DNA from: Gaeumannomyces sp. JS-464
Taxonomy: Eukaryota; Ascomycota; Sordariomycetes; Magnaporthales; Magnaporthaceae
Assembly (NCBI GenBank): GCA_002197995.1
Contig: NGZR01000005.1
Location: forward strand, 682,001 to 746,000
Direction: 5' to 3'
Length of the DNA stretch: 64,000 bases
How positions within the stretch are numbered: the stretch's first letter is position 1; the number at the start of each line of letters is the position of its first letter. Below are positions 841 to 58,706 of the stretch, piece by piece. The notes under the pieces were generated by a model, which saw nothing but the letters and a program-made list of their open reading frames with translations, was not told the origin of the DNA and made no database searches. The translations under genes were made by a program, and so were the position numbers.

Positions 841-3414
841 CTACCGCTCCTCCTCCTCGTCGAGCGGCTCGACCCGCACGAGTATCTCCTCTAGCAGGCC
901 CTCGAGGAACGGGCCGACCTCCTTGCCCATACCAACAGGCTCGGCCTTGTCCCAGTGGTCAATCTCCTTGCACACGTGCGCGAGCTTGTAGACCAGCTTT
1001 CGGATCTTCTCGTGCGCCGCCTCGGCCCGCTGCTGCCGCGGCGTCGGCACTGGCGGCAGCGAAGAGCCGCCGCTGCTGTCTAGCGCCAGCGACGTCGACG
1101 ACGATGACGGCGACGACGACTGCATCTGCTGAATCTGCTGCTGGAGGCGGATCTGCCGCCTCTTAAGCGCCTCCTCCAGAGCAGGGAAGATGACATCGTT
1201 GAGCGCGTCCAGGTCGCCGTTGGGCGGCGACGGCGCCGGCGACGGGAACGACGACGGCGCCTGGAGCTGGCTGCTGCTGCTGCTGCTGCCGTGTGGTGGC
1301 GGCTCTGGTGTGGCCGACGACCTGTGCGGCGGCGGCATCGGGAGCGGCAGCGGCTGATGAGCTAATGGCGATAGTGGCGACACCTGGCTGTACCGCTGGT
1401 GCGACTGCCGCGTCGGCGACGGCGGCAGCTGCTGCTGGCTCGACGTCTTCTGCAGCACATGCGGCGGCAGCGCCGGTGGGGCGTGGTGCTGCTGCAGCCC
1501 GCCGCGGAACGGCGGTATCTCGGGCAGCTTCATGGGACCCGGCTTGGACGGCTGTTGTGACCGCTGCTGCTGGCCCTGCTGCTGTTGTTGGTACTGCGGC
1601 GCCTGCGGGCCGAGACCGTACGAGCTGCCCATGCCAACCTTGGACACTATTCCCTGCCGTCCTTCACCAGCCTGGATGACGTTTCCAAGGTTCATGCCGC
1701 CCATGTCGCGCTGCAGTTGCAGCTGCAGCTCTCGGTCGTAATCTGGCGAGTGCCCACCGCTCGGCAGCAGCGGGGTGGGATTTAGTGAGCCGTTGAAGCC
1801 CAGCGCCCTCGGCGTCTCGGGTTCGCGGGGCACCGGCTTGGGTGGAGATGCCGTGATTACGACCCGCGTCGGGGAGGCGGGTCCTTGGGGGATAGGCTTC
1901 CTCTGCGGGCTGACCTGCCTCGATGTGCCCGTTGACGCGGCAGCCTTGACCGTGTCCCGGTCCCTCGACTCGTCGAAGTTGAAACTGTCCTTGGTCGGGC
2001 TGGCGCTGCTGCCGCCGTAACCCCTAGGCGGAGCTGCGCGCGCATTTAATGGCGGAGTCGTCCATGGGGTTGAGCATGCCCGGGCGGTGGATGAGATTGC
2101 CCCTATCGCCGACCAGGCGCACGGTGCCAAAGTCCCACATGTCCTCGTCGACGGCCTGCCTCTCGGCGGCGCGGCGCTGGGCGCTCTGCTGGCGCTGGGC
2201 CTCGTCGTCGTCGTTATCATCGTCGTCGCGGCCGCCGTTCTTATGGTTCGCGCACCAGCGGCTGTGGCGTTCGATCAGCTCTGTTAGGTAGCTGGTCTTC
2301 TTTGCGTGGCGAACAAAGGGGTGGCGCAGCAGCTCGCGGGCGGCTGGGCGGTCGCGAGGGTCGCGCTGCAGGCACGACTCGATGAAGTCCTTGAAGGCCT
2401 TTGTGAAGTTGCCCTCGAGGCGCGGGGGCGGGTTCTTGGGGATCAGGAAGAGCACCTTCATCGGGTGGATGTCGGCGTAGGGCGGCTCGCCGTTGGCCAG
2501 CTCGAGGGCCGTGATGCCCAGGGACCAGATGTCCGCCTTGTGGTCGTAGCCGGACTGCTTAATCACTTCCGGCGCCATCCAGAAGGGGGTACCCACGAAC
2601 GTGTTCTTCTTGGTCATGGTTGCACTCAGCTGGCCCGACACGCCAAAATCGGCGAGCTTGACCTGACCGTTAGCACTCAGGAGGATGTTGGCCGCTGCGG
2701 GAGGGCATCGTCAGCTAGCTGTCCGTTGTGTAGGCTGGCTCGGGACAGCATGACACACCTTTGACGTCCCGATGCAGCTTCTTGTCCGCATGCAGGTAGT
2801 CCAGGCCCAACAGGAGCTCCCGCACAATGATGGCAATGTACTCCTCCCCAATCAGGCCGGGCTTCATGAGGTCGGCGCAGCTGCCGCCGGAGCAGAACTC
2901 CATGACGATCCACAGCTCGGCTCCCTTTGCATAGGACCCGTAGTACTTTGTGACATATGGTGACTGGAGCTCCGACAGGATCGCTATCTCCTGTATGATG
3001 TCCTCAACCTCGTCCTCGGCGCTCTCAATGTCGATGATCTTGATTGCGACCGCCTGGCCTGTCCGCTTGTCGACTCTGCACATGTCCGACCCTCCGTCAG
3101 TCTCGAGCTATTCCCAGCCAAACCCGGGGCGGCCCATACCGCCGAACAGACGGCAGGCTGCGAGCAAGACCACATACCCTTTGTAGACCTTTCCGAAGCT
3201 CCCTCCGCCTATAGCAAGATGCGGCCCCGCCAGTAGGTTAGCAGGCAAGCAAGCCTTACGGGACCGACACGCCGCTGCCACCGCCCGGCCCGGCAAGGCG
3301 GCCTTCGAAGAGCGTGGGGTCAAGCCACGCACCAATGCAGTATTCCTTGGTGTAGAGCCGCTCTGGGTCCAGCGGACCCTCGCCCTCCTCGTAATCCCGC
3401 TCCCTGTCCGCCAT
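841..3414 (-). CDS. Ste20-family (germinal-centre kinase type) protein kinase, one frameshift
   Basis: Serine/threonine kinase of the GCK branch (Kic1/Sps1/MST3-like), which in fungi acts upstream of NDR kinases in polarity and septation. Four exons fit: 3414-3333, 3208-3178, 3075-2759 and 2694-841, with introns of 124, 102 and 64 nt. The catalytic domain starts almost at the N terminus: glycine loop [11 protein letters not shown] across exons 1-3, lysine in [19 protein letters not shown] spanning intron 3, DFGVSGQL and [11 protein letters not shown] conserved [15 protein letters not shown] segment follows, then a long Q/P/S-rich low-complexity region and a C-terminal helical segment. Just after DMWDFG the frame changes at an A3 run (plus 2045-2047, TTT). 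Removing one base gives ...[15 protein letters not shown] and a 2,283-nt CDS (760 aa). The start ATG immediately precedes the conserved YTKEYCIG entry. Which GCK paralogue this is cannot be settled here. Confidence 0.9.
2045..2047 (-). other. Putative 1-nt insertion frameshift in the kinase
   Basis: The minus strand reads ATTAAATGCGCG. Reading AA instead of AAA joins two frames that are each clearly coding on their own side. No GT...AG intron fits between them. Confidence 0.75.
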
Positions 3415-5948: not shown

Positions 5949-7743
5949 CTAGCTCTCCACAAACTCGACGGCGAGTGTGGACTGCTTTATGCCCGCCTCC
6001 TCGATCGTCTTGTCCAGGTCCGTGATCAGATCCACGCCCTGCGGCATACGCTTGAGCTCAAACTCAACCCCGGCCCTGGTCTCATCCAGCGGCGACGCCT
6101 TTAGCCACTCGTACACGCGCGAAACCGGATCCGACGTCGCGAACCGCCGCACCACCCTGCCGCCCGGGTGCATGAACTGTATGCGCGTGATGCCGGGTCC
6201 ACCGGGTGCCGGCTCCTCGTGCGGCCTGTCGGATGGTATCCTCGCAAAAGGCGACTGCTCCACCTCCGGAGCAGGTGGCGCTGCGGCCGTGGCGGTATCG
6301 AGGTCGTCAGCAGCTTTACGCTTGCCCTTGTCCACCCTCGTGAGCTCGTCCGGGTCGTGGATGCTAGGTCTTGCCGACGACTCGGACGACTCGCCGTTGG
6401 AGCCCTCGAGGCTGTTCTGCATTGCGAGCTGCAGCATCTCCTCCTCGGTCATGCGGTCCACGTCCACCTTCTTCTTGGGCGGCCGCGTCTGCGCCACCGG
6501 GTTCTTGCCCTGGAACTTGTAGCGCTCCAGAAAATCCTCAAGCTTCTCCGCAAAGTCGGCGGCCTGGGTCGGGCAGTCGACGCCAGCCCAGACCTTCATC
6601 TGCTCGCCCGTCCGCGGGTCCACCACGGAAATGTGAGGATAGTTCTCTGGTATCTTGTGCTGCTCGTTGGGCAGGTACAGCTGGATGTATTGCCTCGCGT
6701 TGACGTGATCCTTGTCGTACTGCAAAAACAGGAAGCGCTCGCGCACCAGCTGCTGCACACGGTCGTCCTTCCATATGTCCCGGTTCAGCAGCTGGCACTG
6801 GAACACAGACATGTCCTGGAGGTTCACCAAGATCCACTTCTTCTGGTCCTTGCCTTCTTCCCTCGTGTCGTCCCAGTCCAGGTGTGTGAGGATCTCCCGT
6901 GGCGGCCTGAAGAGCTCCGCAAGTCGCCGTGTGCTGTTATCTTGGCTCGAGTTCCCCGCCGCTGGAGGGCCATCGTCCCAGACCGACTGAGAAAACACGC
7001 CTGCACCTCTGCTGGCTCTGTACTCTGTAGAACGAATCAAATCCCGGGTGGTCAGAGCGTGTCCAAATCTCGGCGTTGGGGTGAGGTAGAGTTGCTGCCA
7101 CCGCCTGGAAACCTACCATTCCGAGCTTGCCGCTCCCTCCTCATTTCTGCCAGGAAGCGCTCCGCTTCGTCTTCATCCTCGTCCGGGTTGAGCCTTGCGC
7201 CACCGTGAAAGATGCCCGAGTAGTCGGCACCGCCCACCAGCGTCTCTGTGGTGCGAGCAATCGGGGCGCGCACGTCGTCGTCGACAGCTCCAGGCCCCCC
7301 GCCGCCGCCGCCACCAGCCCACCGGCCCCGTAAAGCTCTTCCTGGAGCCGCCGGGCGTAGGCGGCGTCCTCGTCTTCTTGGGCGAACCGGGCGGCAGCCA
7401 CGGCGGCGGCAGCCTCGCCCGTAGCGTCCGCGGCGCTGGCCATATCGACGTCGTCGGCGTCGTCCGAGTCGCTGTCAATGTGGATGACCCCGCTCGCGTC
7501 CTCGCGGCCGCTCGTGCGCGAGAGCTGTGGCGGGTTGCTGGAGGAGGAAGGCTGCGGTCGGGCCGCCGAGGAGAGGGAGTTTATGATGTCTGGGTTGTCG
7601 AACCAGAGGGTGCACGCCGTCTCGACGTCGTTGTGCGTGATCTGGAGCAGCTTCCGGGCGACATCAGCCGAGACCGCGGTAAGGTCCATCAGAAGCTGGG
7701 TGCTCTCGTCGTTGGACGAGGCGCCGCCCGCGGTGTCGGCCAT
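5949..7743 (-). CDS. UBA-UAS-UIM-UBX protein, Cdc48/p97 cofactor (UBXN7/Ubx5-like), one frameshift
   Basis: Adaptor that links ubiquitylated substrates and ligases to the Cdc48/p97 segregase. Two exons fit, 7743-7117 and 7024-5949, with a 92-nt intron (GTAGGT...CTACAG). Order: N-terminal UBA-like helices (LLMDLTAVSADVARKLLQIT), acidic linker, UAS thioredoxin-like domain (HLDWDDTREEGKDQKKWILV to FLERYKF), a UIM-like motif (EEEMLQLAMQNSLEG), a basic KGKRKA patch and a C-terminal UBX domain starting at ITRIQFMHPGGRVVRRF. This order matches UBXN7/Ubx5. The frame is broken in a G6 run (plus C6, 7295-7300). One more G gives AAAAGGPGAVDDDVRAP and a 1,704-nt CDS (567 aa). The start ATG at 7743 sits directly before the UBA-like region. 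Its neighbour Ecm29 also serves the ubiquitin-proteasome system. Confidence 0.9.
7295..7300 (-). other. Putative 1-nt deletion frameshift in the UBX gene
   Basis: The G6 run (C6 on plus) would need to be G7 to keep the acidic linker and the UAS domain in one frame. There is no plausible splice pair here. Confidence 0.75.
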
Positions 7744-9055: not shown

Positions 9056-12000
9056 CTACTCCAGCCCCGCGATGGCCTCTCCCAGCACCTTCCTCACGTC
9101 GGCCGACCGCTCCCGGTCAGCCGCGGCCCGCAGCAGCACCGCCGTCTCCGCCACGACGGGCGCGACGGTGCTGGCCTCGCCGGCCACGACGCCGAAAACC
9201 CCGGCCTTAACCGCCCGCGCCCACTCGCGCGCCGCCTCGGCCCGCGCCGCCCGCTGCGCCTCGGTGCCCACCTCGGCCGCGCCCATGTCCAGCGTGCCCG
9301 CGAACCAGCCAGCGAGGACCCCGCCGTGCCTCCTAGTCGCGTCGGCAAAGTCCTCATCCGGCAGGCGCGCGGCCGCGGCCTCGGCGGCCGCCACGGCGTC
9401 GGCCAGCAGCGACCGCGCCAGGCCGTACCAGACCGAGCGCCGGACGCCGTCGAACTGGGCCGCCGCCGCCAGGTACGGCCTGAGCGCCGTCATGACGCCC
9501 GCCAGTGCCGACGAAGGGGTCAGCCGCATCTTAGGCGCCCAGCACCCGCCCCGCGCCACCAGCTCCAGCGCCGCCTCGGCCGTCTTGGCTATCAGCTCCT
9601 CGCGCGCGCGCCTCTCCGCGCCGCTCCCGCCGTCCACGTCCATGCTGTCGCCGCCGCCGCCGCCACCTCCCTCCACGAGGACGTCGAGGTGCGGCTTGGC
9701 GATGGCCAGGGCGACGGCGGCCACCTCCTGGCCTCGGTCCATGTACTTGTCCATGTCCTCGTGCGCCCTGGCCACGCGCCCGAGCGCCTTGAAGGCCGGG
9801 ATGCGGTAGGCGTCGTTGGTGCGCTTGGCCTCGCGCACCGCGATCTTGGCGATCCGCTCCTCGAGCGCCGCGTCGCCCTTCCAGAAAGCGCCCCCTTCTC
9901 GGCCAGGTCGGCCAGCGCGTCCAGCAGCTTCTCCTTCTTGTCGAACGTCTTGAGCGCCAGGCCCTTGTCCAGCGCGGGCCAGACGGCTTTCAGGCCGGAC
10001 ACGAAGACCTGCCCGCCGCGGTCCGAGGCCTGCAGGATCGAGCTGACGGCGTCGCCGGCCGCGAGCGCCGCGCCGTGCTTGAGCGCCCATTGGGGGGACT
10101 CGAGGCCGCGGTTGGCGAGCTGGGCGATCTCGGTCGCGTACCGCGCCGTAGTGAGGTGGCCGCCGGCGTGGCGAACCCAGACTGCTGTAAACGCCGTGGC
10201 GGCGTACTGGTCGGCGTCGTGCCTAGCGACGTAAGCGAGCGGCAGCAGGCGGGTCTCGAGAGCGGCGAAGTGGTCAGGCGACACCTCTGCTACGGCGCGT
10301 ACTGCGTCTGCGACTCGTTGGCGGCGCGTCTCGTCCTCGGCGGAGAAGTAGAGTCCTTCGAGGTACTCGGCGAACTCGAGCTTGGCACAGTCGTTTGCCA
10401 GCCTGATAACATAGGCGGCAGCGCGAGCGTAAGAAACACTGACTTCGTCGTTGCGATCTAGGATTTGACGGCGCAACAGTTTCAGGAAGCGAGCGGCGTA
10501 GGGCGCGAACACGAGGCCGTGACGGATGGAGAGCGTCTCGAGCAGTTTGCTGCAGCCGATCTTGGTGGGCATGCCGATGGCTTCCTTGATGGTCTGCTCA
10601 ACGCTATCGAGCAGGGCAGGCATAGTCTCGGCGTCGACACAACGGAGACAGTCGTCGACAGTTTGCAAAAGGGGCGATGCCGAGACGAGTGAGCTCCTTA
10701 GCTTGTCGATCTTATCGCGCTTGGCCTCTCCCACTCTTTGGTAATGGTAATTGATGGCCTCGGGCTCGACCGTGCTGAGCAGGTTGAGGAACGCGGGCAC
10801 GATCTCCGCAACGTAGGGCTGTAGTCCGTCGCCTCCATGCTTTGCCATCTCCACCAGAGTAACGATAGTGATCCCTTGAACCTCCTTGACGTTGCTCTGG
10901 ATGCCCTTGTCGGATAGAAGGAAGGGCATGGCCTCGCTTATCATAGACTTGGCGGTCGCGGACGAGTTTGATGCCGTGCCGCCGCCGTCCTCCAGGTGCC
11001 GGACGAGCGTGTTCGAAAGATTGATGCAAAGTCGGAAAGCAGCTTCCCGGACGGTGCCTTTGACGTCGTCGAGAACCTTGGCCGCGGCTTGCCAGACCTG
11101 CTTGTAGAACTTCTCGTACTTGATGAACTTCTGCCCAGATAGCAAGTCGGCAATGGCTGCGCAGCTGGCCTCGCGGGCTCTCCACTCCTTGCCGACAATG
11201 CTCTTGAGCAGGTCGGTCAGGATGGCGTCAAAGTGTGCGTCTATAACGGCGCCAGAATCCTTGACAAGCGCCTTCCATATGTCGTTCATCGACTTTTGTA
11301 CGTTGGGGTTGGGGTCGAAGCGGTATCGGTACAGCTTGGGGTACAGCTTGGGGTCGACCTCGGACTCGGACAGGATGTTGCTAAGACCGAAGCGACCGAA
11401 TGCGGATCTAGTCGACCAGGTGGCGGCGTTGGTGGCGAGCGACATGAAGCGATAGATGAGGCTCTGGTCTCCGACCTCGTTGGCCAGGCTGACGATGTCC
11501 TTGTACGATGTGATGGACTTGCCCTCGCCCGTGGGCAGCGCGCCGGCCTCGAATAGCTCCGTGTCTTGGTCCACCTTGAGCTTAGGTCCGGATCCTGTAA
11601 AGGCAGCGACGAGATCACGCACAAGATCTGCCCTAAGCGCCGCGTCACCCCTCTCGTATGCCAGCGATAGTCCTCTCGAAGCAGTCTCCTGAACAAGCTC
11701 ATCACGCGCGCCGAGCAGCCGCATGAAAGCCGCCTGGCCCTCGCGGAGTCTCGAGTGGATCTCGGGCAGGTGTGAGCAGTGCTGGATGAGACAGAAGAGC
11801 CAGATGCCAGATGCCTTGAGGAGTGACGGCTTGGTTGACTTGCAGTCCTGTAGCAGCTTGTCAAGTACTGCAGAAACGCTCTCGCTGCGCTTGGGGATGC
11901 GGTAAGACGTGTCCTTGGGCTCTACATCGAGTGTGAGCTGTACTACCTCCGCATCCCAGCGAGCCACGGCTGCTGTAATGGCCTCGCCCACTGCGAAGTG

Positions 12001-14797
12001 TACCTCGGCCTGCTTGATCTCGTAGAGGTCATAGAGCTTGGTGAGAATCGAGTTCAAAGTTGCTTCCTCGTCTTCAAGCTTGGTCAGGGCGATAGGAAGG
12101 CGTCCCAAGGCAGTGATTGCTCGCTCGTTGCCCTTCTTCGCCTGAGCAAAGAGCACATCTGTCCAGGAGGAGGTGGATTCGGGTCTTGCCTCACCCTCGG
12201 GCAGAGCAGAGAATCCAGCGGTCCATAGCTGTATAGCTGTGTCGAAAATGGAGTTCTGGAAGGATGAAGAGGTGGTGGACATGTCACCTGGGCTCGGCAG
12301 AACGGTGTGCAGGTCGTTAAAACCACCAGCGGCAGACGTCGAAGTGAAATATGTTGACGAGTAGTACGCTGATCTTGATAGTAGGTGTGCGAGAGACAAA
12401 AAGGCACCTTGGGCGGCATTGAGGTCGCTTCCAACGGCCGACTCCCATCCGCGAGCCGTGTCTTCGAGATACTTCCTCCCCAAAGATGGCAGTCTCTGGG
12501 TTGGCAGGGTGGGCGCCGAGGATGCCATATGCCCTGGCTCCGAGGGCGCGGAGCTCGTCCCGGTTGGACATGGCGAGAGGCAGCAGCTCGCGGGCTCGTT
12601 CGGCAAGGCTCCTGAGCACGGTCTTGGGCGCCAGCGACGCGACGTCCACGAAGCACTGAGCACAGTCGACCGAGATCTGCGGTTTGTCCTCGAGAATGCC
12701 TTCAAAGGCGGCCGTGAGAAGCTCAAGGAGAGCCTGGCCCGTGACGTCGGCCAGGTACTCCCGGACGACCTGGCGGGCGTTGAGGTCGGAGCGGACCTTG
12801 GTCTCCAGCTGGCTCCCCCAGCCTCGCTCGATCTTGAAGTCCTTCTTGAGTGCGGACAGGAACAGCATGCGCGTGCAGTACTTGACCGTCACAGAATAGG
12901 CGTTGAGTCGAGCTCCGTCGAAATTCGCGAAGAAGGTGGAGCCGCGGTGCTCCGAGGGAGGGACATAGTCGCCGTCGGCATGCGAGATCATCTCGGTGAA
13001 GTAGGTCCGCACCATCTGCTTCCAGTCGGGCAGCTCGGGGGACGCGTCGTCGTTGGCGTAGTAGGTCCAGGGGTCCAAGCCCTTCTTTCCCTCCTCGACG
13101 ACGTCGCTGCGCTCGTCCCGCGCGCCGGCGACCGCCAGGATGTCGATCCACCGGGCCGTGATGTCGGACAGCGGGAGGTACCGGTTGGCGCACCGGACGG
13201 CGGCGGGCCGAGCGCTGCGCACGACCTCGGTGCCCTGGCCCACGGGCGTGGTCATGTAGGTGAGCAGGATCGAGTGGACCATCAACAGCTGCTCGGGCGG
13301 GAGGGCGCCGAAGAGGTGGGCCATGCCGGGGAGGGCGCCCTCGACGCTGGGTGCCACGTCGGACGGGTCCTCGGACAGGGAGCGGAAGAGGAAGCTCAGC
13401 AGGACGACGCGCTCGTGCTGGGTCAGCACCGCCGTCTTGGCCAGCAGACCGATGGTCTCGTAAGCGCGCGCCCGCAGCGCCGACTGTTCCAACAACAGCG
13501 GCGCCTGGTGCGGCACTGGCCAGCCCTGCTCCAGCACGAATGCGCGGAGGCGGTCGGCCAGCGGCGCGGCGAGATGAAAGTCGCGCCTGCCGAGGCCGAC
13601 GCGGGCCACCCAGTTGAGGTACTCGAAGAGGGCCTTGTGCAGCTTTGTCTGCTCCAGGCCCAGCGACCTCATGCGCACGGCAGCAGGGCCGCTGTCGATC
13701 TCCATCGGGTCCTGGCCAGGCCCGCGCATGTCCAGCTGGACGACATCCATGATCTCGGGTGCGTACTTCACGGATGCGGCGGACCTGGCCAGGAGCTTCA
13801 GGATCCGTGTGCGGTATGGCGGCGGCAGGCGGGCATGGGCCTCGAAGAGGCTCTCGACGTGCCTGGTGTCTTCGACAGACACCGTTGACCTCTTGAGGAG
13901 GTCCTCGCCCACCGACGAGATCCGGCCGTCCGAGTTGGCCGCGGCGAGGACAGACGGGATGAAGCGCTCGTCGTCCTTGAAGGCGCCACTGGCCAGGAAG
14001 TTGACGGCGCGGACGCGCGTTTCGGCGAGCTTGGAGCCATGTGGCGACGTCCACGTGTCTCGTTTGCCCATGGTGAGGAAATCGATGTCTTCCTTGGACA
14101 AGCCTGCGGAGTCGTCGGTCGTTTGCTTGAGCAGGAGGAACTTGCCGAGCCAGTCGGCGACGTACGTGGCGTCCCTGGGGGCCGTGAGGCCGATCTCATC
14201 CCTGAAAGCGGCATCTTCCTTGGTACCTCTTGGCGGGATCTTGATGTCGGGCAGGATGCGAAGTAGAAGATTGAAGAGCGACGGGCTGCTTAGCGAGGTC
14301 GTACCGATTCCCTTGAGAAGCAAGGCGACAAGCTCGCTGCGCTCCTCAGGCTCGATGCGGCCAATGCTATGCTGAACAAACAGCAAGTCTAGATGCCGTA
14401 CGACTCCATGGTCTGTCGACTTGAACTGGGTCAGGAGATCCTTGACGGGAAGCACGACGCTGCTCGGTTGCGTTAGCAGTAGCTCGACTTAGTTCGAGAA
14501 AAGGGACTGTTACACATACCCTGGGGCTTGGATATATCCCTTCAGTCTCTGGCATATCGCGATGACCTAATGTGCGCTTGGTGTCAGTGACAAGATACTG
14601 CGTCGCTTGCTTCCCCCATCTATCGCGACCCTCACCTTGTTCCTCACAGACACATGCTTGCTTCCAGCCTTTAGCAGTAGAGGCGCCAGGTAGACCTTGA
14701 GGAGCGCTTCCAGCTTCTTCTCATTGTTTGCAACGGCGTGAATCCTGAATTCGACCTTATCGACGAGCTCAAGTTCATCCTTCTCTTCCGAGGACAT
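9056..14797 (-). CDS. ECM29: Ecm29, proteasome core-regulatory particle adaptor (HEAT-repeat), two frameshifts
   Basis: Large HEAT-repeat scaffold that tethers and quality-controls the 26S proteasome. Three exons fit: 14797-14636, 14566-14520 and 14459-9056, with introns of 69 and 60 nt. The N terminus carries the family signature: LELVDKVEFRIHAVANNEKK, YLAPLLLKAGSKHVSVRNK, then VIAICQRLKGYI across intron 1. The rest is helical repeat sequence. Exon 3 has two frame changes: a G4 run (plus C4, 12478-12481), where G3 gives AIFGRKYLEDTARGW, and a G5 run (plus C5, 9891-9895), where G6 gives AEKGGAFWKGDAALE. The shifts cancel, so the spliced length is 5,613 nt (1,870 aa), very close to the known size of Ecm29. 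The ATG at 14797 (MSSEEKDELELV) is preferred over a TTG six bases upstream. Confidence 0.93.
9891..9895 (-). other. Putative 1-nt deletion frameshift in ECM29 (3' part)
   Basis: The G5 run (C5 on plus) would need G6 to join LLDALADLAEKG to AFWKGDAALEERIAK. Both sides are clearly coding in different frames. Confidence 0.75.
12478..12481 (-). other. Putative 1-nt insertion frameshift in ECM29 (middle)
   Basis: The G4 run (C4 on plus) read as G3 joins AHPANPETAIFG to RKYLEDTARGWESAVG. The two indels in this gene cancel over the full length, but about 860 residues between them are out of frame as sequenced. Confidence 0.75.
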
Positions 14798-20122: not shown

Positions 20123-20174
20123 CGACCCAGGACAGGGCGGGCGGGCGACGACCCAGGACAGGGCGGGCGGGCGG
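20123..20174. repeat. 26-bp tandem duplication
   Basis: Two adjacent copies of a 26-base unit (CGACCCAGGACAGGGCGGGC plus six more bases). They are identical except at the last base. Confidence 0.85.
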
Positions 20175-21317: not shown

Positions 21318-21340
21318 GCAGCAGCAGCAGCAGCAGCAGC
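21318..21340. repeat. CAG/GCA trinucleotide run
   Basis: About seven consecutive GCA units, not within a supported gene. Confidence 0.85.
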
Positions 21341-27500: not shown

Positions 27501-27896
27501 GCTTGGGGATGTGTTCCTGGAAGTATACCTTGAATCCTTCTATTCCTTTAATCGTCGTTGATTTCTGCCTTGGCTAGTGGCTGTGTGTGAGCCAGGTATC
27601 CCTGGCAAAGTGCCAGGGACATCAGGTTTGCATGTATGGGCGTGGGTCTGGTTACTTGCCCTGGCAGAGGCACACGGTCTAGAGGGAGGTTCCTTCCCGT
27701 TTTCAGGGCAACGCGGCCGTCAAGGACGTCGAGTTGTCGGCGTGGAAGTGCCCCACCCCCATTGAGGCCCCGCTCCCGCTGTCCTATTGGCTGGTCTTTG
27801 AAATAGGTTGCTTCGAGGGCTATATCTTTAACTACACGTCGAGAAACCTCTCTTCGAACACAACATCACACACACCAGCACACCACATCCGCCACA
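21501..27896 (+). other. Long plus-strand C+T-rich interval, no gene supported
   Basis: Most of this interval is visibly pyrimidine-rich on the plus strand, with many TCCTTT, CTCCCT and TTTCTTT runs, like a fungal 5' leader but far longer. At 22208 a GTGAGT donor-like site follows a leader-like segment. No frame keeps coding bias for long and no domain is recognised. The last 60 bases (ending CCACATCCGCCACA) are a typical leader for the gene starting at 27897. It may be a very long leader or promoter, an untranslated transcript, or decayed sequence. Confidence 0.4.
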
Positions 27897-28708
27897 ATGG
27901 CGGGAAACCAGGCTTCGCGTCCACTTTTTGTGGAATCAACTGTGCTGCCCAACCGTACGAACTGTTCCCCCCTTGATCACGAAGTCGTGTCGAGATTGCT
28001 TTCTTTCGCTGCTTGATAACTGCTTTTTATTTATTTACAGCATCGCTAACTCTCATCCTGTACAGACCTGCTGTTCGCCCCGGACGCCGCCGCACCAGGG
28101 AACTGGACCGGCTAAGAGCCCGTGTCCACGACCAGACGCTCCCCCTCTGCCACGTCCAAGTGCTACAACTAGCACTTTACGAGGTCGCAGACCTCGAGCA
28201 CCGCCGTGACGAGCTAACCGCTGGCATCAACTCGGCCTCGGCCTCGATCGCAGAGCTCGAGACCCAAATCGCCGCCACCAGCGGCAGAATTCGCATCCTC
28301 GGCTCATACGCCGAGATCCCAGGCGGCTTCCAGCGCGAGCAAACCGCCGAGAACGTCCGGCTCGTCAACCAGAGCCGCCAGGAGATCGAGACTCTTGGCC
28401 AGACCCTCCCGGCCCTCGAAGCCCACCTGTTCGCCGCAAGAGTCGTGCGTGGCTCTGCCCAGATCGAACTCGACCAGGACGTCTTGGTCCGACTTCCTGG
28501 CCTCCGCAGCAACGTGCTCAGTGCAGCAGACGATCTTGCCTGGCACAGCCGCCCGTTGCCTGTCGCCCAGGTCACGTTACCTCTCTCGCCGCCTGACACC
28601 CCACCCCACAACCCACACCCTCCAAGCTTCCCTCCCCCGCCTCCCCCGCCTCCTCCACCTCCTCCCGCCGCTTATCTTCCACCTCATCCCACCGGCACGT
28701 CTGCCTAA
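27897..28708 (+). CDS. Coiled-coil protein of unknown function with a polyproline tail
   Basis: I do not recognise this family. Two exons fit: 27897-27954 and 28041-28708, with an 86-nt intron (GTACGA...TTTACAG, branch-like TGATAAC). They join in phase to give 241 aa. The ATG has a good context (CCACAATGG) after an A/C-rich leader. The N terminus reads MAGNQASRPLFVESTVLPN, followed by a basic RPGRRRTRELDRLRARV helix, a long heptad-like helical region (about residues 60-150, for example SASIAELETQIAATSGRI) and a run of about 12 prolines near the C terminus. Third positions are strongly C/G, which supports real coding. The TAA at 28706-28708 is 12 nt before the ATG of the RNA-binding protein gene. 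Part of the proline-coding, pyrimidine-rich end could be an intron, ending at AAGCAG (28707-28712), in a longer transcript. Confidence 0.6.
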
Positions 28709-28720
28709 GCAGCTTCCGCA

Positions 28721-36643: not shown

Positions 36644-36747
<104 letters not shown>

Positions 36748-40124: not shown

Positions 40125-41084
40125 TGTCTTGGGCTTGTCAGAAACGGTTTAGGGACTCAGGGGCTCGAGGTGTTGATGTGACACGCTGAAAAACCGGGTG
40201 AAGGCGAGTGTTGAAAGAACAGGTAGTCAAAGAGGGGCGGGAGGGAGGGGCAGAAGGGCAATCGAGGGGCTCCCAGAGCCTTACCTCTTCGTCTGCACGT
40301 GCTGGGATCGGGGCTGTGATGTGGACAGGCGTCAGGCAGGCAGCGCGGCGGACCAATGGCGCGCCCGAGGCGGCATCGCAGGAAACGAATGGCCGCGAGG
40401 CGTCCACGCCACTCGCATGCATGCACTCGTAGGGCAGTTCTGATGCAGGCTGAACTTGGCATGGAGGGTAGCTGGGCGCTCATGGTGGGAGATATCTGGT
40501 ACCTAGTATGGGCTGATGTTGTAGTTAGTTGCAAGGGGAGGGGAAGCTCTGCCGCGAAAAGCAAGGGTGCTCCCTGAACGGGCATTGTGCCGGATCTATT
40601 CCAATTTGTTTGGAACTTCTCAATCTGCTAAAACACAGGTAAAATTTTGGACCACACATCTCCCTGTGTTTTCTTTTGCCTGGACTGTCCATGCTCTGCT
40701 AGATTTGCCCCTCTCTGCGGCTTAGAAGCTCCCCCTGCCTGCAGCAAAGAAATATGCGGCTCCAACCCATCGTCCAACACTAGCTGCTGACATCCGCAGC
40801 AGTCAACACAACGTTTTCCCCCTCCTCAGCTGAAAGCCCGCATGTAAGCCGCATTATCGGCATCCCCGCTAGAGGCTAGAGCGGCGCCATCCCATGCATG
40901 CTGCAGCCACAATCCCTCAGCCCCTCCTCCGCCCGAAGCTGGCCCAAAGGCCCAGAACGCGCCCAACGTGTGTTCCCCTTCTTAGACGGGCGATATATGT
41001 TAACCATCTTGGGCGCCGACGATGGCTACATCTGTGAGTCTACTATCGAGATCTCCAAGCCTATAGCCCTTTCTATGCGATAAT
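40125..41084. other. Divergent promoter region between Helo/ankyrin and GH13 genes
   Basis: The two flanking genes are transcribed away from each other, so this 960-bp stretch should hold both promoters. No conserved site could be assigned by eye. Confidence 0.5.
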
Positions 41085-43152
41085 ATGGCATACCCGGCTG
41101 ACTTCCTGAACCGCAGATCCTCGGCCTTCTCGCTGTGGACGCCGGGGCGCGACTTCGGCTCCAACCCACCCCAGCTCGTCCTCGGGAGATACGATGCAAG
41201 CGCCCCTGGCTCCTTCGTTCAGCTCGGCCACCGGCCCCTCGCGCCCGCCGCCGACGGCAAGAAGGACCTGTGGGAGCTGAGCCCTCGCTCGCTGTCGCTG
41301 GCCGAGGACGCCGTGTACCACTACTGGTTCGAGCTGGACGATACCTCCCCGGAGCGCCGGGGCAAGATGCTGGTCACCGACCCCTTCGCCTTCACCGTCG
41401 ACTACCGCCTGAAGCGCGGCGTCGTGGCCGGCGACGCCCACCCAAGCCAGCCCGCGTCCGTGATCAAGCACCGCGCCGGCGCCCTGCACGCCTGCGACGT
41501 CGACGGCGCCGAGCCGCGCCGCGTCCGCACCCCGCCGCAGGCCTCCCTGCCGGCCAACAACCACCTCGTCATCTACGAGCTGCCCGTGACGTGGGCCCGC
41601 GCCGGCGTCGAGGGCGGCGTCGTGGTCGACAAGGGCACCTTTGCCGACGTGCGCGCGCTCCTCGACGCCGACGCCGACCCCGCCGACAGCAACACCAGGC
41701 CCGGCTTCGCCGCCTCCATCCCCGCCCTCGGCCGCGGCCGCGCCCTGCTCGCGGAGCTGGGCGTCAACGCGCTCGAGCTGCTCCCCGCGGCCGACGCCGC
41801 GCCGCGCGGCGAGTGGGGGTACGCGACGGCCAACTACCTCTCGCCCGACGCCGATATGGGCAGCGCGTCGGACATGGCCTCCCTCATCGAGACGATCCAC
41901 GCCCGCAAGGTCCGCCTCTTCGCCGACGTCGTCATGGCCTTCGGGCACGATCCCTACCAGTACGTCGACTTCCCCAAGTTCCACATCCGCGCCGACGCCG
42001 AGCCGCACAATCCGGACGCGTACCAGTCGCACGCCGACGGCCAGAAGCGCGAGGGCTGGGGAGGGCAGCTGTGGCGGTACATAGCCGAGACCAAGGGCAC
42101 GTACAACCCGGGGACGGGCGACGGCGGGCTCGACACATCTAAGGGGCTGCAGCCGGCCTGGGAGTTTCACAAGCTGGCCCTGGCGCGCTGGATGGCCGAC
42201 TTTGGCGTCTGCGGCCTGCGCCTCGACAGCGTCAACAACATCGGCAGCTGGGACTTTGTGCGTGCCTACAAGGACCGCGCCTGGCAGCTGTACAAAGACC
42301 GCTACGGCGACGGCCACGCCCCGGACGACAGGTTCCTCGTCATCGGCGAGGAGCTCAGCATGCCCGTCGACATGGTCCGCACCGGCGTGCTGGACGCGCT
42401 GTGGAACGAGCCGTGGCAGGAGCGCGCGCGCGCCCTGCTGCTCGGCCAGCCGGGCCCGCACGACGGCGGCAGCTTCGAGGCGACGGTGCGGCGCGTCGCC
42501 GACTGCACATCGGCCGACACGCTCTCGCCGCGCTTCGCCGACGGCGCCCAGGCCGTCAACTACCTGACCAGCCACGACGTCGAGGGGTACCGCAAGGAGC
42601 GCCTGTTCGACTTCCTGTCGTCGTCGGGCGGTGTGGGACGTCGGCGCCCGCGCCAAGCTGGCCTTTGTGCTGCTGCTGACCAGCGTCGGCGTGCCCATGA
42701 TCTTTGCGGGCGAGGAGTTTGCCGACCAGATGGACCGGAGCCGCAACGACATGCGGTACAAGCAGACGGACCCGGTCAACTACGAGCGCGTCGACGAGAG
42801 CGAGTGGAGGCGCGACCTGTTCGCCTACGTGGCTCGGCTGGTCAAGTTCCGCACTCAGTGCCCGGCCCTGGGCGTCGACGATACGGACTTCATCCACGTC
42901 GATCAGAGCCGCGGCGGCAAGGTCCTCGCCTGGAAGAGAGGAGGGGTCCAGGGCGGCCAGGCGCCCGTGGTTGTTGTAGCCAACTTCACCGACAGCGCCA
43001 CGCCTGGGGCCGAGTATGTTGTCCCCAACTGGCCTGGAAGGGGTGAGCCGGGCTGGAGAGAGGTCACGCAGTCACGAGATGTGCCCAACGAATGGGTGGG
43101 GAGGGAGCCGCTGATGGCATGGGAGGCAAAGGTGTACACGCGGTGGAAATAA
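41085..43152 (+). CDS. GH13 alpha-amylase-superfamily enzyme, intracellular, intronless, one frameshift
   Basis: Alpha-glucan-active TIM-barrel enzyme with an N-terminal beta-sandwich region and no signal peptide. GH13 regions are visible: I DVVMAFGHD (near residue 280), II GLRLDSVNN with nucleophile D381, III VIGEEL with acid/base E422, and IV NYLTSHDVEG with H497-D498. Residues near the end (GVPMIFAGEEFADQMDR) match the typical late-barrel IPMxxxGEE segment. The frame changes at 42626-42631 (GGG or GG). Removing one G gives FLSSSGVWDVGARAKLAF and 688 aa. The GC content is very high and there is no intron in 2 kb, unlike most neighbours. The N-terminal layout is more like bacterial maltooligosyl or debranching-type GH13 than secreted fungal amylases. 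Exact substrate is not assignable. Confidence 0.85.
42626..42631 (+). other. Putative 1-nt insertion frameshift in the GH13 gene
   Basis: GGGCGG has one G too many for the frame to continue from FLSSSG to WDVGARAKLAF. Both sides are clearly GH13 sequence. Confidence 0.75.
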
Positions 43153-43602: not shown

Positions 43603-46130
43603 CTAGACCCTGTTCTCGCTGCGCTGCTCGGGGAAGACCCTCTTGTACACGCCCGTCGTCGTGTAGTCCTTGCGCGGCCCCTTGACGGCGACGTCCAGGG
43701 TCCAGTCGTCCATCTTGACCGAGTTGAACTTGAAGTTGTAGTGGCTGGTGTAGTAGTCCTGCTCGCACAGGTGGCCGCCACTGGCCTCGCACACGGCAGC
43801 CTTTCCGGCGCCGTCGGCTTGCTGCTGCCCGCCCCCGGATGGCACGGGGAAGTCGAGCTCGTGGAACAGCTTCTCGGCCCGCGTGTTGTCGTTAGGCAGC
43901 ACGAACCAGACGCTGATCTTGTCCTTGGCCTCGTCGTACCGCCAGATGTACCGCCTCGTGGTCTGGAACTGGAACCCGGTAGCGAGCGTGAACTTGCCCT
44001 CTTCGATGAGGAGGTACTCGAGGCCGAGGTCAGTGTCCGCGGAGGGCGATGTCTTGTATGGGGCACGACCGTCGGCGGTGCCCTCTCTGAGATGGAAGAT
44101 CACCTTGCCCTGGAAGCGCCCGTTCTGGTCTGGGTACTTGGGGCTGGAGTGCGTCCGCTCGAGGCGCCACTCGCCGTGGAGGGAGCGGAAGACGGCGTGG
44201 GCGAGGAACTTGCGTTGCGTGAGGCCGCCGACGATGGCCTCCTGGGTCTGGCGGAGGGCCTCTTGTGCCTCGGCGATCTGCTCCATGGTTGCGTCTGGGG
44301 AGATGTACCGGGCCGGGGTGAGGACGTCTATGGGCAGGTTGGTGGGTGGTGTGGGTGGCATTGGCTTGTCAGCAGCCGGCTGGAAGATTTGGATGTTCAA
44401 GGCTTCGGCGAACTGGTGCATCAGCCAGACGTAGTCACCCATGGGAAACTGCGTGATGCGTGGGTCCCTTCGCAAGGCAGTCGTGTAAGCTTCTGACGTG
44501 TCATCAGCAAGAGCAGACTGGAGAGAATCCGGCAGGGGCTCTCCGAAAAGCGACCTGGAGAACATGGTGGCCAGGAACCGAGCTTGCATCTCCATCACTC
44601 CCCAGTATGGCGAGCGGTAGAAGCCCACGAATCCCAGGCCAGGGGCTCCGGGGTGGAAGGTGGAGTGGAAGGCCAGGGAAAGGACATGTCCACGGTTCTT
44701 GGACAAGGCAGCCGGATCTTGGTACCCCAGCCGAGCCTTGACTTCCTCCGTAAGGAAGGAGAGTGACACACTAGCACTGAAGCCAGTGGCCAAAACAATA
44801 GCAGTGACATCCCCGAGAGCGTGATCTAGTCTTTCCTCGCTGTATTCCGAGGGAGCAACTGTGCCCTGTTTGCCAGAGAAACCTGCGACTCTTGCCCTGA
44901 TGGGATGGATTCGGCCGAGGCGCACAAATTCGTTGTAGTGCTCGCTCATGGCTAGCAGAGGGGGTTGGTCGAACAGGTTCTTCTTTCTCATGTCAAGCAC
45001 ACTTCCAAAGTCCTCCTGCGCTCCTCCCAGTGTACGGCAAAAGATGTCGTTGAGGCCCTTAGCCCCCTCTACAGACAACGAACCTTGGGTATTAGTAAGG
45101 GGCTTGGGACGGTTGGTGAGGTTGTACGACGTGAGGTCGCAGGGGAGGAAAGGCGGAGATGTCTCCGAGGGCTGCCGAAAAGGGCGGGTTAGTATCTCCA
45201 CGCCGAAAATGGCAGCTTGGACGATGTTCTCATCACTTACCGCAGGTGTTGTAAATAATGGGAAGATCCAGGCAGGCTGCTCGGCGATGTGGATAATGCT
45301 GAACCTGCTTGCGTTGGGGATTACGCGTTCTTTGGGAGAGTAGGCTGCGGAAGACAGGTGGGTGGCGATCGATGCAGCTATCTCGACTCCAGACATCTGG
45401 CCGCCGACGACGAGGATCTTGGGGTTCGGTGCAGGCTCGGCCCTGAGCTTCGCGTCGATGGATGTGTTGTCGAGTCCAGGCCCGAATAGGCTGTTTAGAT
45501 CCCGGTACGCTGTGCTCGTGATGACGGGGACGGCGGCTGACTTGAACCGGGTGGGCACAAGGGGCTTCCCGAAGTAGCCGGAGCCAACAATGACGCAGTC
45601 GAAGAGCTTCCTTTCTGTTTTCTCATCACTAGTGCGGGTGGTGACGGCCCACTGGCCAGGAAGACCGTCAGGCTCGACGGGGGCTGTCTCGTCGACTCTT
45701 TGGTTCAGCTTGAGCTCGGCACCACTGCAGTAGCGCTCGTAGTACCGCTTGAGATACTGGCCGACCTGCCAGGCATAGGGGAACTCGGGGATCTCGGGTC
45801 CCCAGGCGAGATCGCTGTACTGGACGGTGTGCTTGCTTTGGTTGGTTCGCATCAGGGGGTGGATGTCGCCGCCCGTGTCATCTTTGGTGAGCGGCCATAG
45901 GCCCCCGATCCTACCCTTGCTCTCGTAGATGGTGACTTTGAACCTTGGAGGTCCAAGTTGGCCCGGCGGCGCAGGAAATCGCTGCTCAAGAAGGTACTTG
46001 GCGGCAACGAGACCTGACGGGCCGGCACCTGTAGGGGAAGGAGTCGCGTCAGCGGAGACTTGCATGCCGATTCCTCCGCAGTATATGCCTTGGACGTACC
46101 TATGATGCATGCTGCTTTGGGAGGGGGCAT
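43603..46130 (-). CDS. FAD-dependent monooxygenase fused to a DUF6314-like domain
   Basis: Flavin-containing monooxygenase-like oxidoreductase expected to use FAD and NAD(P)H. Exon 1 (46130-46100) encodes only MPPPKAACIIG. A 71-nt intron (GTACGT...CCTACAG) splits the FAD-binding GAGPSG motif, and exon 2 starts at 46028. Other sites: GRIGGLWP, a second Rossmann motif ILVVGGQMSGVEIA, and ALGDVTAIVLATGFSAS. From about residue 620 a separate domain begins (FRSLHGEWRLERT, GRFQGKVIFHL, ATGFQFQTTRRYIWRYD, YYTSHYNFKFNSVKMDDW, VKGPRKDYTTTGVYKR), matching the DUF6314 pattern. A second intron (45240-45172: GTAAGT, branch ACTAAC, CGGCAG) has perfect signals but is 69 nt and free of stops. The protein is therefore 795 aa spliced or 818 aa unspliced. 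Substrate unknown; fungal homologues occur in both primary and secondary metabolism. Confidence 0.85.
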
Positions 46131-48708: not shown

Positions 48709-49760
48709 TCAGATCCGGTGGGGGATCGAATCCCTCCTCGCAATGGTCTTCTTGCACAGCAGCGAGTTCTTGCACTCGCGCTTGTTGACAAAGTCGTCGA
48801 GGTTGCGCAGCGTGCACTCTGCGATCTCGATCAGGGCCTCCTCGGTGAAGAAGGCCTGGTGGCCGCAGACGACGACGTTGGGGAAGGTCATGAGGCGCAT
48901 GAGCTCGTCGTCCTGGATGATGTCTGCCGAGTGGTCGTTATAGAAGAGCGCGCCCTCGCCCTCGTAGACGTCCAGGGCCAGGCCGCCCAGCTTATGGGAC
49001 TTGAGGGCCTCGATGACGGCCTTTGTGTCGATGAGGCCGCCGCGCGACGTGTTGACGAGCAGGGCGCCCTGCTTCATCTTGCCGAGCGTCTCGGCGTTGA
49101 TCAGGTGGCGCGTCTTGTCCATGAGCGGGCAGTGCAGCGACACGACGTCGGAGCGGGAGAGCAGCTCGTCCAGGGCGACGTACTCGCCGTAGGCGCGGAA
49201 GTCGTCGCTCTTGAAGACGTCGTAGGCCAGCAGGGTGCAGCCGAAGCCGTGCATGATGCGGGCGAGCGCGAGCCCGATGCGGCCGACGCCGACGATGCCG
49301 ACCGTCTTGCCCGTCAGGGTGCGGCCCAGCAGGCCGTCGAGCGAGAAGTTGCCTTCGCGCACGCGGTTGTAGGCCCGGTGCGTCTTGCGGTTGACCGTCT
49401 GGATCAGCGCGACGGCGAACTCGGCCACGGCCTCGGGCGAGTACGACGGCACGTTTGCGACCTGCAGGCCCAGCTCCTCGGCCGCGTCCAGGTCGACATT
49501 ATTGTACCCGCGCACCGGAGCAGCACGGCGCGGACGCCGAACCTGTGCAGGCCCTCGAGCACGGGCCGCGAGAGGTTGTCGTTGACGAAGGCGCACACGG
49601 CGTCGGCGCCCTGGGCCAGCGACATGGTCTCCGGGCTAAGCGGCAGGTTGTGGAAGGTGATGTCGACATTGGCGTGCGACGAGTCGGCCTGGTGCGCCTT
49701 GTGCACCTGGCGGATGTACTGCTTGTCGTAGGACTTGGCGCTGAAGACGGCGAGCTTCAT
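48709..49760 (-). CDS. D-2-hydroxyacid dehydrogenase, D-lactate dehydrogenase type, one frameshift
   Basis: NAD-dependent enzyme reducing 2-keto acids such as pyruvate to D-2-hydroxyacids in the cytosol. The N-terminal catalytic half begins MKLAVFSAKSYDKQYI and continues to LSRPVLEGLHRFGVRAVLLR. The NAD-binding domain has VGIVGVGRIGLALARI followed by LLAYD. Catalytic positions are Arg in LLVNTSRGGLID, Glu in LDVYEGEG and His in VVCGHQAFFTEEA. The frame is broken in a G3 run (plus CCC, 49507-49509). One more G gives RCAGYNNVDLDAAEE, the conserved AGYNNVD motif of D-lactate dehydrogenases, and 1,053 nt (350 aa), the usual family size. It is intronless. The ATG at 49760 is the only start that keeps the full N-terminal strand. 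Confidence 0.92.
49507..49509 (-). other. Putative 1-nt deletion frameshift in the dehydrogenase
   Basis: GCGGGTACAATAATG read with four Gs restores AGYNNVD, one of the best-conserved motifs in this family. Confidence 0.85.
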
Positions 49761-51245
49761 TGTGGCAGGCGGGGTAGGCGAAGCTGCTGTGGATGGTGGT
49801 TTAGGGGGGTTAAATGTGTTGAAAATGATGAGAGGGTTGGGAAGAGCAGAGTCTTTAGGTGTTAGTCTAGGTTCTAGGGACGAGCTGGCGATGCCCGGCG
49901 AGAATGGGCTCTTGATGATGAATCATTTATGATGGTTTATCTGCTATGTGTGCGCGGTCTCTTGGTTCCTGAGAAGGGCGACAACTTTCAAGATAAAGGT
50001 GGCGGGCGGACTGCACAGGATGATGGTGGGGGTGCTTGCCAAGCAGCGCGCTCGCCATACTGTCGGGTGGCGGTGGTGCTGCTTCCCTGGCCCCGCGACG
50101 CTAAACCCACGTGCAGAAACGGTGCTTTTCGCTGGAGCGGCGTTGCGGCGGCTTCTGGGTGACATCATGGCGCCACAAATCCCAGCATGGCACGCGCTCT
50201 CGCCCGTTCCGTCCAGACCCGGCTTATGGGTGCACAAGCCATTTTTAGCTGCCTTCGGAAGCCTCCATCGTTGCATGTTTCTGACATTCCGGCGCTGTAA
50301 GGGATAAGACGAAAATTGTCACATCATGCTGCTCGGTTTCTTTGCCCGATCCTAATTGATAGGCTCAATTCTCGGTCGTGTTAATCTTACAACCCGCGTT
50401 TGCCACTGCGATAAACTCCCCGTTGACAGCGCAGCGCCTGGGCCCAACGGCAAGTCGCCTGATCCATCGGTGCTGCGGCAGTGTCACAGTGGCCTGCCTT
50501 TTGTCAAATATTTATCGCAACCTACCAGTGTCCGAGGAAAATTCGACATTTACCGACCAGATGAATCGAGGTTTTTCTCGTGCGACAAGGAAATGGGAAG
50601 AAAACAATCGAAATTGCATGACAGGGGCAGCCTGGGCGACCTGCACAACTGGAAGCGTCCCCTTCTGGGCGACCGGAGTGTCTCCTTTGCATTCGCGCCA
50701 GGGACTGGATGGACAAACGACTGCTTGAATAGCCCTAGTCCCACAACCGCAAACAGCGCAGTCGCTGTCATCGACCCAATGCATCCACATTACACTATGG
50801 GGCGGACCATTCTGTCTTCCATCCGCCGACAGCCCCTCGCCTGCTGACAGCGGGCGGGCCGCAAACTTCGAAGACGGATGGGGAGCCATGTGGAAGCGGG
50901 AAGCAATCAGAGTGCAGGGACACAATACTGCAGGGCACGGAGCCTGCAGCCGCTGTCAACGTCTTCCCAGCGGCGTGGCTCAACGGCCTGCAGCTTCAAA
51001 CCTTTCCCGTCGACCTTGGACCGATGGTGACCGAGCCTTGTGCACCCGCGGCGAGAACATGGCTGGCGACAAACGTGGATACAGGGGGAGTCTTATTTTG
51101 CAGATTGGAAATACAAAGCTAATTATCTAGAAGGAAAAACTGGGACTGTGGTGATGTATACTTGCGTTACAACAACGTAGCTGTGGGTGGCATTACAAAC
51201 AGTGCAAACGACAGGAATCTTGGCAAATGTCTATCTACAACGAGG
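49761..51245. other. Dehydrogenase promoter and intergenic region, no gene seen
   Basis: The left part should contain the dehydrogenase promoter. Open frames up to about 160 codons (50356-50847 plus) have no coding bias or known domain. Confidence 0.4.
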
Positions 51246-52271: not shown

Positions 52272-53266
52272 TCACGGACAGCGACACCGGCGGCATTTCC
52301 GGTTGCCGTACCACGGCCCGAACCTGGCCGTACGGCTTCTTCTTATGCGGAGAGGTCTACCGGCTTGGCCCTTGGTCGATGCTATGCCCGGGCGGGTCCC
52401 CTCCCCAGGACGGGGCGGCATGGTCGCGTGAAGATAGGCATCATAGTCGGGCGACTTGAGCCTCCATTCCTCCATCCACGCCCGCAGAACCTCAACGGCA
52501 GCACGGAAGAGCCTCTCTTCAGTCGGCGGCGCCTGGACCCGGTCGAGCTTCTTAAGCTCGCGCCCAAGGCCGGCAGCCGTGGTGGACTTGAAGAAGTCTG
52601 CGCAGTCGTCTCTTGCCTTTTTGGGCGGCAGAGCATCGCACAGCGGGTTCCACACGCGGTGGGGGCCTGCGCCGTGCAGCAGCTCAAAGCAGAACCGCAG
52701 CGCGTGGTCGTCGGCTGTGAAGCCGGTCTTGTCGGCGCTGCCGAGGACGTGACAGGGCTTGAGCTCCATGTCTGCGATCTCATCCGGGCACGGGAGCCGG
52801 GGGCTCTTGCAGATTGAGAGTGCATGGGATGAGGAAGTCGGTCTGGTACTCTAGGAAAGCGGTCTCGGCATGACGGCCAAAGGCCCACTCTCGAAGACAA
52901 TATCTCCAGGTATCTTTGCTTGGGAGATCGAAATCGACGGCGAGGATATCTAGGGTCGTTTGCTCGCGGAGGTTTCGCTTGGAGTCCAGGCTCGTTAGCG
53001 GTGCAACCATGTTCTGGGACGAGGGCAAAGTCTTGTTGTTTGACAATGTGAGGATGGCTTGATGCTGGTTTGGGTCTTTTGGGCAGTGGATATTGCAAAT
53101 ATTCTATCAGGAGGTGAGACTTCGCAGTCAGATTGCTTACCTGCTGGAGCTCGGCAACTGGCAAACACCCTTTTATGAAATTCTCGTGGCGACGAGAAGT
53201 AGCCTCGTGGAGGACAAAGAAACGAGATATTAATAGATGAAAGGCTGGTTTTTGGATTCTATTCAT
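52272..53266 (-). CDS. Hypothetical two-exon protein, one frameshift
   Basis: I do not recognise a domain. Exon 1 (53266-53141) starts MNRIQKPAFHLLISRFFVLH and ends VAELQQ at a good GTAAGC donor. The 76-nt intron contains CTGAC and ends CAAACCAG, and exon 2 (from 53064) continues HQAILTLSNNKTLPSSQNM. The frame breaks in a C5 run (plus G5, 52799-52803). With C4 it reads CTLNLQEPRLPCPDEIADME and goes on with well-biased codons (LRFCFELLHGAGPHRVWNP, LFRAAVEVLRAWMEEWRL). Corrected spliced length is divisible by three (305 aa). The upstream end is less sure; more exons could lie before 53266. The acidic and helical composition suggests a soluble intracellular protein. Confidence 0.55.
52799..52803 (-). 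other. Putative 1-nt insertion frameshift in the hypothetical gene
   Basis: C5 (G5 on plus) read as C4 joins the two coding halves. No intron signal fits here. Confidence 0.55.
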
Positions 53267-58162: not shown

Positions 58163-58196
<34 letters not shown>

Positions 58197-58467
58197 TGGT
58201 CCCTGCTCCTCCTCGTTCAGCCTCGTCTTGTGGAAAATATTCTCCTTTCTATTCCTTTACTTTTCTGGTTCCCAACCTGGAAACCTCTTACCACTTATAG
58301 TTGAGATCCGTGTTTGTCCATCTCGTCCTCAAATATCGAACTTCGTTCTAGTTCGGCCTGTGTCACAGTGCTGTTCTCTTCGCCGTCGACGAGCTTTCCT
58401 TGGGCGGGCTCCGTGTTGAGGATGTGCTCGGGGGCGGATTCGGGACTGGTCAACGCCGACCCAATGA
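55402..58467. other. Gene-poor interval with a poly-C tract
   Basis: No gene is supported. A tRNA-like stretch near 56210-56315 is too degenerate to call. Around 57900-58300 the plus strand is pyrimidine-rich and contains a C33 run. Confidence 0.4.
58164..58196. repeat. Poly-C tract of 33 bases
   Basis: An uninterrupted C33 (G33 on minus) within a C/T-rich stretch. Its exact length is unlikely to be reliable. Confidence 0.95.
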
Positions 58468-58706
58468 TCAGTAGAATCCAGGGCTGGAGCCGCCATATTT
58501 TATTGAATGGAGCCTTGGGTTGCTCCCGCCGCAGCCGGCGTAGCAGCTGCCCTTGTCGAAGCACTTGATGACTATGCCGCAGTCGGACAGCATCCTCTCG
58601 CCGTCGCAGAACCCCAGAGCCCGTTAGGGGTGTCGACGCGACAGTGCCAGCCGCGGACGGCCTCCCGGGCCATGTGGCCCAGGAACGCCACGGTCGTGGG
58701 CGGGAA
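58468..58706 (-). CDS. Cysteine-rich small protein exon, frameshifted; start not found
   Basis: Unrecognised family. After a good acceptor (TTTTCGTCCACAG) the minus strand reads FPPTTVAFLGHMAREAVRGW, HCRVDTPNGLWG. With one more G in a G4 run (plus C4, 58613-58616) it continues FCDGERMLSDCGIVIKC, FDKGSCYAGCGGSNPRLHS, to a TGA at 58470-58468. The joined 79 residues hold six cysteines, as in many secreted fungal small proteins. Codons are strongly G/C-third before and after the break. No convincing upstream exon with a signal peptide was found within 600 bp. It may be partial, decayed or dependent on further sequence errors. Confidence 0.4.

What the first reader, a model, noticed from the sequence alone, without database searches (positions are those of the whole stretch)
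841..58706. Systematic single-base indels in short G/C runs break most long genes
I located one-base frame changes in the kinase (2045-2047), UBX gene (7295-7300), ECM29 (9891-9895 and 12478-12481), GH13 gene (42626-42631), dehydrogenase (49507-49509), hypothetical gene (52799-52803), cysteine-rich exon (58613-58616) and probably the Helo/ankyrin gene (acceptor at 38090-38091). All but the kinase site are in G/C runs of 2-6. In each case one base gained or lost gives a CDS divisible by three. Conserved housekeeping genes are hit, so decay is unlikely; homopolymer miscalling is the simpler reading. GT61, the RRM gene and the monooxygenase are intact.
Basis: partly seen in the sequence, partly recalled or inferred. 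Interest (0 to 1): 0.75.

Follow-up and report, generated by a model that had tools for sequence, protein, structure and literature searches.

The report
Sequencing-error frameshifts in a fungal assembly
Several housekeeping genes of this fungus look broken by one- or two-base slips of the reading frame, but the slips are almost certainly mistakes in the genome assembly rather than something the fungus carries.

Summary
The frame changes are in the sequence, but most likely not in the organism. Comparison with relatives confirms five breaks in four genes (a STE20/YSK-type kinase, a UBX gene, ECM29 twice, a D-lactate-dehydrogenase-like gene); a sixth, in a GH13 gene, is supported less tightly. 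Three claimed sites (hypothetical gene, cysteine-rich exon, Helo/ankyrin gene) were not confirmed. The window is not special: in three families where every candidate was scored, 11 intron-free frame breaks occur in 31.9 kb of CCT chaperonin, HSP70 and tRNA-synthetase matches. Two contigs of the same assembly share 17.46 kb with at most 2 substitutions but 16 indels; 10 of the 14 single-base ones lie in G/C runs of 3 or more. A coding model finds 8 frame breaks in one copy, each within 50 bases of such an indel, and 1 in the other. By size and N50 the assembly matches Gaeumannomyces sp. JS-464 (PacBio RS II/FALCON merged with SOAPdenovo2; no polishing step named).

The parts
841..3414 (-). STE20/YSK-type kinase gene; frame changes near 2047
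   Evidence: Pfam Pkinase; 4 of 4 relatives change frame; coding model 2027
5949..7743 (-). UBX-domain gene; frame changes within about 7294-7327
   Evidence: Pfam Thioredoxin_7 and UBX; 4 of 4 relatives change frame; coding model 7285
9056..14797 (-). ECM29 gene; frame changes near 9892 and near 12480
   Evidence: Pfam ECM29_N and HEAT_ECM29; 5 of 5 relatives in three segments; coding model 9887 and 12474; no second copy found
41085..43152 (+). GH13 gene; frame change near 42636, less firmly placed
48709..49761 (-). D-lactate-dehydrogenase-like gene; frame change between 49506 and 49515
   Evidence: chain 3wx0 residues 17-94 in one frame and 92-344 in the other; Pfam; coding model 49518
27704..29880 (+). 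RRM gene, no slip called
43603..46065 (-). FMO-like gene with DUF6314, no slip called
59397..61286 (-). GT61 open frame, no slip called
37303..40148 (-). Helo/ankyrin region; claimed break not confirmed
52361..53103 (-). hypothetical gene region; claimed break not confirmed
58298..58894 (-). cysteine-rich exon region; claimed break not confirmed

Best explanation
The frame changes are residual one- and two-base consensus errors in a long-read fungal assembly, mostly lost bases and, where two copies can be compared, mostly in short G/C runs. They are spread through the assembly at roughly 0.3 per kb of coding sequence, so long genes carry them most often. Shown: the breaks, their occurrence in essential-type genes on several contigs, and near indel-only differences between two copies in the assembly. 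Inferred: that the organism's own DNA is intact at these sites, that the assembly is that of Gaeumannomyces sp. JS-464, and that unpolished PacBio RS II consensus is the source.
For: Six breaks in five window genes with no intron room at four of the five (GH13 looser). 11 breaks in 31.9 kb of fully scored families, with CCT epsilon residues 45-115 and 116-154 in overlapping different frames. 10 of the 14 Pfam-found breaks are net one base short. C2/C34: 17,457 bases, 2 mismatches, 16 indels; 10 of 14 single-base indels in G/C runs of 3 or more against 9.6% of bases, P 4.7e-8; 8 model breaks in the C34 copy, all within 50 bases of an indel, against 1 in C2. Source paper names FALCON, SOAPdenovo2 and HaploMerger2 and no polishing.
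Against: No reads were seen. The 14 Pfam-found breaks are not near longer G/C runs than chance (P 0.185). The kinase break is in an A/T run and of the one-base-extra class. The random-stretch scan only doubles its null (0.23 against 0.11 per kb). The coding model missed several Pfam-supported breaks (none called in L025, L027, L029 and L032). Families where only top candidates were scored gave 0 breaks in 35.1 kb and 3 in 67.9 kb, which selection of intact copies may explain.
Confidence: 0.95

Rival explanations
1. Real gene decay: the strain carries pseudogenised copies of these genes.
For: Frames are really interrupted in the sequence.
Against: CCT, HSP70 and tRNA-synthetase genes are hit too; coding bias and similarity continue on both sides; the C2/C34 copies differ by indels, not substitutions. 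That these genes are essential is recalled knowledge.
Confidence: 0.02
2. Unrecognised introns or alternative splicing bridge the frame changes.
For: The genes do contain ordinary introns; the GH13 break is bounded only loosely by homology.
Against: At ECM29, kinase, UBX and dehydrogenase the two frames overlap or lie within about 10 to 45 bases, and no sequence is left over.
Confidence: 0.02
3. Programmed translational frameshifting or another decoding peculiarity.
For: Many conserved genes are affected.
Against: Shifts are of mixed sign and size; the relatives aligned encode each protein in one piece; a second copy in the same assembly lacks the 8 breaks of the other.
Confidence: 0.01

Closest known systems
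Homopolymer indel errors in long-read-only assemblies of Drechmeria coniospora (PMC7500977; passages seen)
   Same: A filamentous ascomycete whose conserved genes are interrupted by one-base indels, mostly in homopolymers, left in the consensus.
   Different: Nanopore reads there; PacBio RS II is inferred here. There the errors were corrected with Illumina reads; no reads were seen here, and after polishing that paper reports more insertions than deletions, whereas lost bases dominate here.
Indels in nanopore ascomycete assemblies at low coverage (PMC9453082; passages seen)
   Same: Small indels in and outside homopolymers that shift frames of conserved genes.
   Different: Nanopore data and a coverage effect; coverage here is unknown to me apart from the 454-fold stated in the probable source paper.
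Gene-fragmenting errors addressed by Kastor (PMC12007338) and Homopolish (PMC8011154); search listing and start of abstract only
   Same: Frameshifts in long-read consensus recognised by comparison with relatives.
   Different: Described for small or microbial genomes; here a 53-Mb fungus.

Membership tests
Long-read consensus indel artefact | Frame changes without room for an intron while similarity continues | tested here: met
   GH13 only loosely
Long-read consensus indel artefact | Spread over the assembly, also in genes the cell cannot lose | tested here: met
   11 breaks in 31.9 kb of CCT, HSP70 and tRNA-synthetase matches; essentiality recalled
Long-read consensus indel artefact | Redundant copies differ by indels, not substitutions | tested here: met
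   16 indels, 2 mismatches in 17,457 bases
Long-read consensus indel artefact | Indels concentrated in homopolymers | tested here: inconclusive
   Strong in C2/C34 (P 4.7e-8), moderate for five window intervals (P 0.0036), not significant for 14 Pfam-found breaks (P 0.185)
Long-read consensus indel artefact | Accurate reads disagree with the consensus | not testable with these tools
   No reads held
Pseudogene | Confined to dispensable or duplicated genes, with substitutions and further decay | tested here: not met
Spliceosomal intron | A stretch of intron length left out between the two frames | tested here: not met
   not settled for GH13
Programmed frameshift | Shift of one kind, shared by relatives | tested here: not met
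   Mixed classes; relatives tried are in one frame

The most novel reading that the evidence does not exclude
A minority of the breaks, most plausibly the kinase one (A/T run, one-base-extra class, same place against 4 of 4 relatives tried), are true strain-specific mutations or sites of translational frameshifting hidden among assembly errors.
Probability: 0.03. Interest if true: 0.5.

Novelty: not a real feature. Interest (0 to 1): 0.15.

Why it matters
It is a data-quality result. At about 0.3 breaks per kb of coding sequence (0.27 in the window by the model; 0.35 in fully scored families), roughly a third of 1.5-kb genes in this assembly would carry one if errors fall at random (inference). 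Gene-loss, pseudogene or gene-inventory claims drawn from this assembly would be unreliable until it is checked with accurate reads.

Tried and rejected
Gene decay, hidden introns and programmed frameshifting were considered and rejected as stated under the rivals. The G/C-run claim was tested three ways with unequal results. The coding-model scan of 20 stretches was too noisy for a clean genome-wide rate: 19 slips in 82.5 kb at penalty 12 and 27 in 83.4 kb at penalty 10, against 46 in 411.6 kb and 79 in 413.9 kb of null sequence. PDB searches with the two ECM29 segments found nothing. A DNA search with L001 gave seven short matches and did not list its own place, so it tells nothing about duplicates. 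Pfam scans of eight further open frames of the window gave one weak match. Paper searches with Gaeumannomyces + nanopore, Magnaporthiopsis + genome assembly, and Magnaporthales/nanopore/34 contigs did not point to the assembly; Gaeumannomyces + PacBio did.

Full report
What was checked. The window is C30:682001-746000 of a 53.0-Mb, 34-contig fungal assembly. Its ECM29, kinase and UBX proteins are closest to Gaeumannomyces proteins: 89% to G. avenae, 90% to G. tritici, and 92% to G. tritici (95% to an unnamed sequence).

Sites confirmed. For ECM29, tblastn with five relatives (5 of the 120 listed) gives three collinear segments in frames -1, -2 and -1 in 5 of 5; for the closest they cover residues 1-727, 731-1592 and 1586-1870, meeting near 12480 and 9892 with no space for an intron. 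For the kinase, four relatives (of 120 listed) change frame around 2047; for UBX, four (of 120 listed) change frame within about 7294-7327, before an ordinary intron. For the kinase relative P0122 one gapped alignment also runs on in the first frame as far as 1211. A frame-tolerant local alignment places the kinase break at 2047 in 4 of 4, UBX at 7313-7316 in 3 of 3, one ECM29 break at 9890-9902 in 5 of 5 and the other at 12481-12493 in 4 of 5; P0002 puts it at 12460 and gains only 3 points. By class the kinase break is one base extra (4 of 4), UBX one base short (2 of 3; the third two bases extra, the same modulo 3), the first ECM29 break one base short (4 of 5; the fifth two extra) and the second two bases short (5 of 5). 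Events listed at the end of a tested piece are edge effects. The dehydrogenase lies on the minus strand: D-lactate-dehydrogenase chain 3wx0 matches residues 17-94 in one frame and 92-344 in the other, and Pfam 2-Hacid_dh runs 8-72 and then 71-132. For GH13 the first frame matches alpha-amylases, the second isoamylases, and the coding model switches at 42636.

Sites not confirmed. The coding model calls no frame change at 52799, 58613 or 38090, and fragments of the hypothetical and Helo/ankyrin genes gave no Pfam match. These sites stay open.

An independent coding model. A periodic model with introns and frame slips was trained on 73 long open frames of the window and 20 stretches of 10 kb. 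In the 20 stretches it finds 19 slips in 82.5 kb of coding sequence at penalty 12 (0.23 per kb; the window has 5 in 22.2 kb), against 46 in 411.6 kb (0.11 per kb) in sequence redrawn without slips. The null keeps unmodelled real sequence and so is conservative. The window looks typical of the assembly, but this scan alone is weak.

Other genes. Neighbouring matches to one Pfam family in different frames, with no intron room, were counted. In families whose candidates were all scored there are 8 in Cpn60/TCP1 (13.4 kb, in five genes), 2 in HSP70 (12.1 kb) and 1 in tRNA-synt_1 (6.4 kb). One of the 8 has an odd 19-base gap and is less sure. At CCT epsilon the first frame matches chain residues 45-115 and the second, overlapping it by 4 bases, 116-154; the short middle piece of a mitochondrial-type HSP70 also matches HSP70 chains. 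Families in which only top candidates were scored gave 0 in 35.1 kb (AMP-binding 14 of 80 candidates scored, MFS 9 of 355, sugar transporters 9 of 260) and 3 in 67.9 kb (kinases, 123 of 243); such lists favour unbroken copies. Ten of the 14 breaks are net one base short. Around these 14 the longest G/C run is not longer than chance (sum 44 against 40.7, P 0.185). The coding model missed several of them.

Two copies in one assembly. Contig C2 (144 kb) repeats part of C34. Over 17,457 bases BLAST gives 2 mismatches and 16 gap openings; a further 1,589 bases are identical. My aligner turns the 2 mismatches into two compensating one-base gaps. Of the 14 single-base indels, 13 are G or C (P 0.012), 10 lie in G/C runs of 3 or more (9.6% of bases do; P 4.7e-8), and 11 are missing from C34. 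The model finds 8 slips and four extra introns in the C34 copy, the slips all within 50 bases of an indel difference, and 1 slip in the C2 copy. Indels almost without substitutions are what consensus errors give, not divergence. Whether C2 is assembly redundancy or a very young duplication was not tested separately.

Probable source. Gaeumannomyces sp. JS-464 was published at 53,151,282 bp in 80 scaffolds with N50 7.46 Mb (whole text seen; taxid 1938905). Here there are 53,005,781 bases in 34 contigs, and C23 with 7,462,253 bases is the N50 contig by the contig lengths seen. This is a match by numbers, not proof. The published G+C is 53.1%; my 20 stretches average 57.1%, two of them 39% and 43%. 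The paper used PacBio RS II and HiSeq 2000 reads with FALCON, SOAPdenovo2 and HaploMerger2 and names no polishing step.

Verdict. It is an ordinary, known kind of error, comparable to that described in another fungus with nanopore reads (PMC7500977, passages seen).

Noticed in passing
C2:47001-64457 against C34 (L021-L024): A 144-kb contig repeats part of a larger contig almost without substitutions, so the assembly holds redundant sequence or a very young duplication.
   Followed up: partly
window 841-14797: Kinase, UBX and ECM29 lie side by side; consecutive locus tags of their relatives in Thermocarpiscus (7221-7223) and Chaetomium olivicolor (5070-5072) suggest a conserved gene order.
   Followed up: no
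window 48637-49731 (+): The 364-aa plus-strand open frame is the antisense of the dehydrogenase gene, not a gene by any match found.
   Followed up: partly
window 43603-46164 (-): One open frame joins an FMO-like part and a DUF6314 part.
   Followed up: no
window and L001-L020: G/C runs of 5 or more are rarer and A/T runs of 5 or more commoner than a first-order expectation; no control genome was available, so the cause is open.
   Followed up: partly
L011, L012: Two of the 20 sampled stretches are AT-rich (39% and 43% G+C), perhaps repeat islands.
   Followed up: no
window 62503-64000 (+): An open frame running off the window has a weak aspartyl-protease match below Pfam's cut-off.
   Followed up: no
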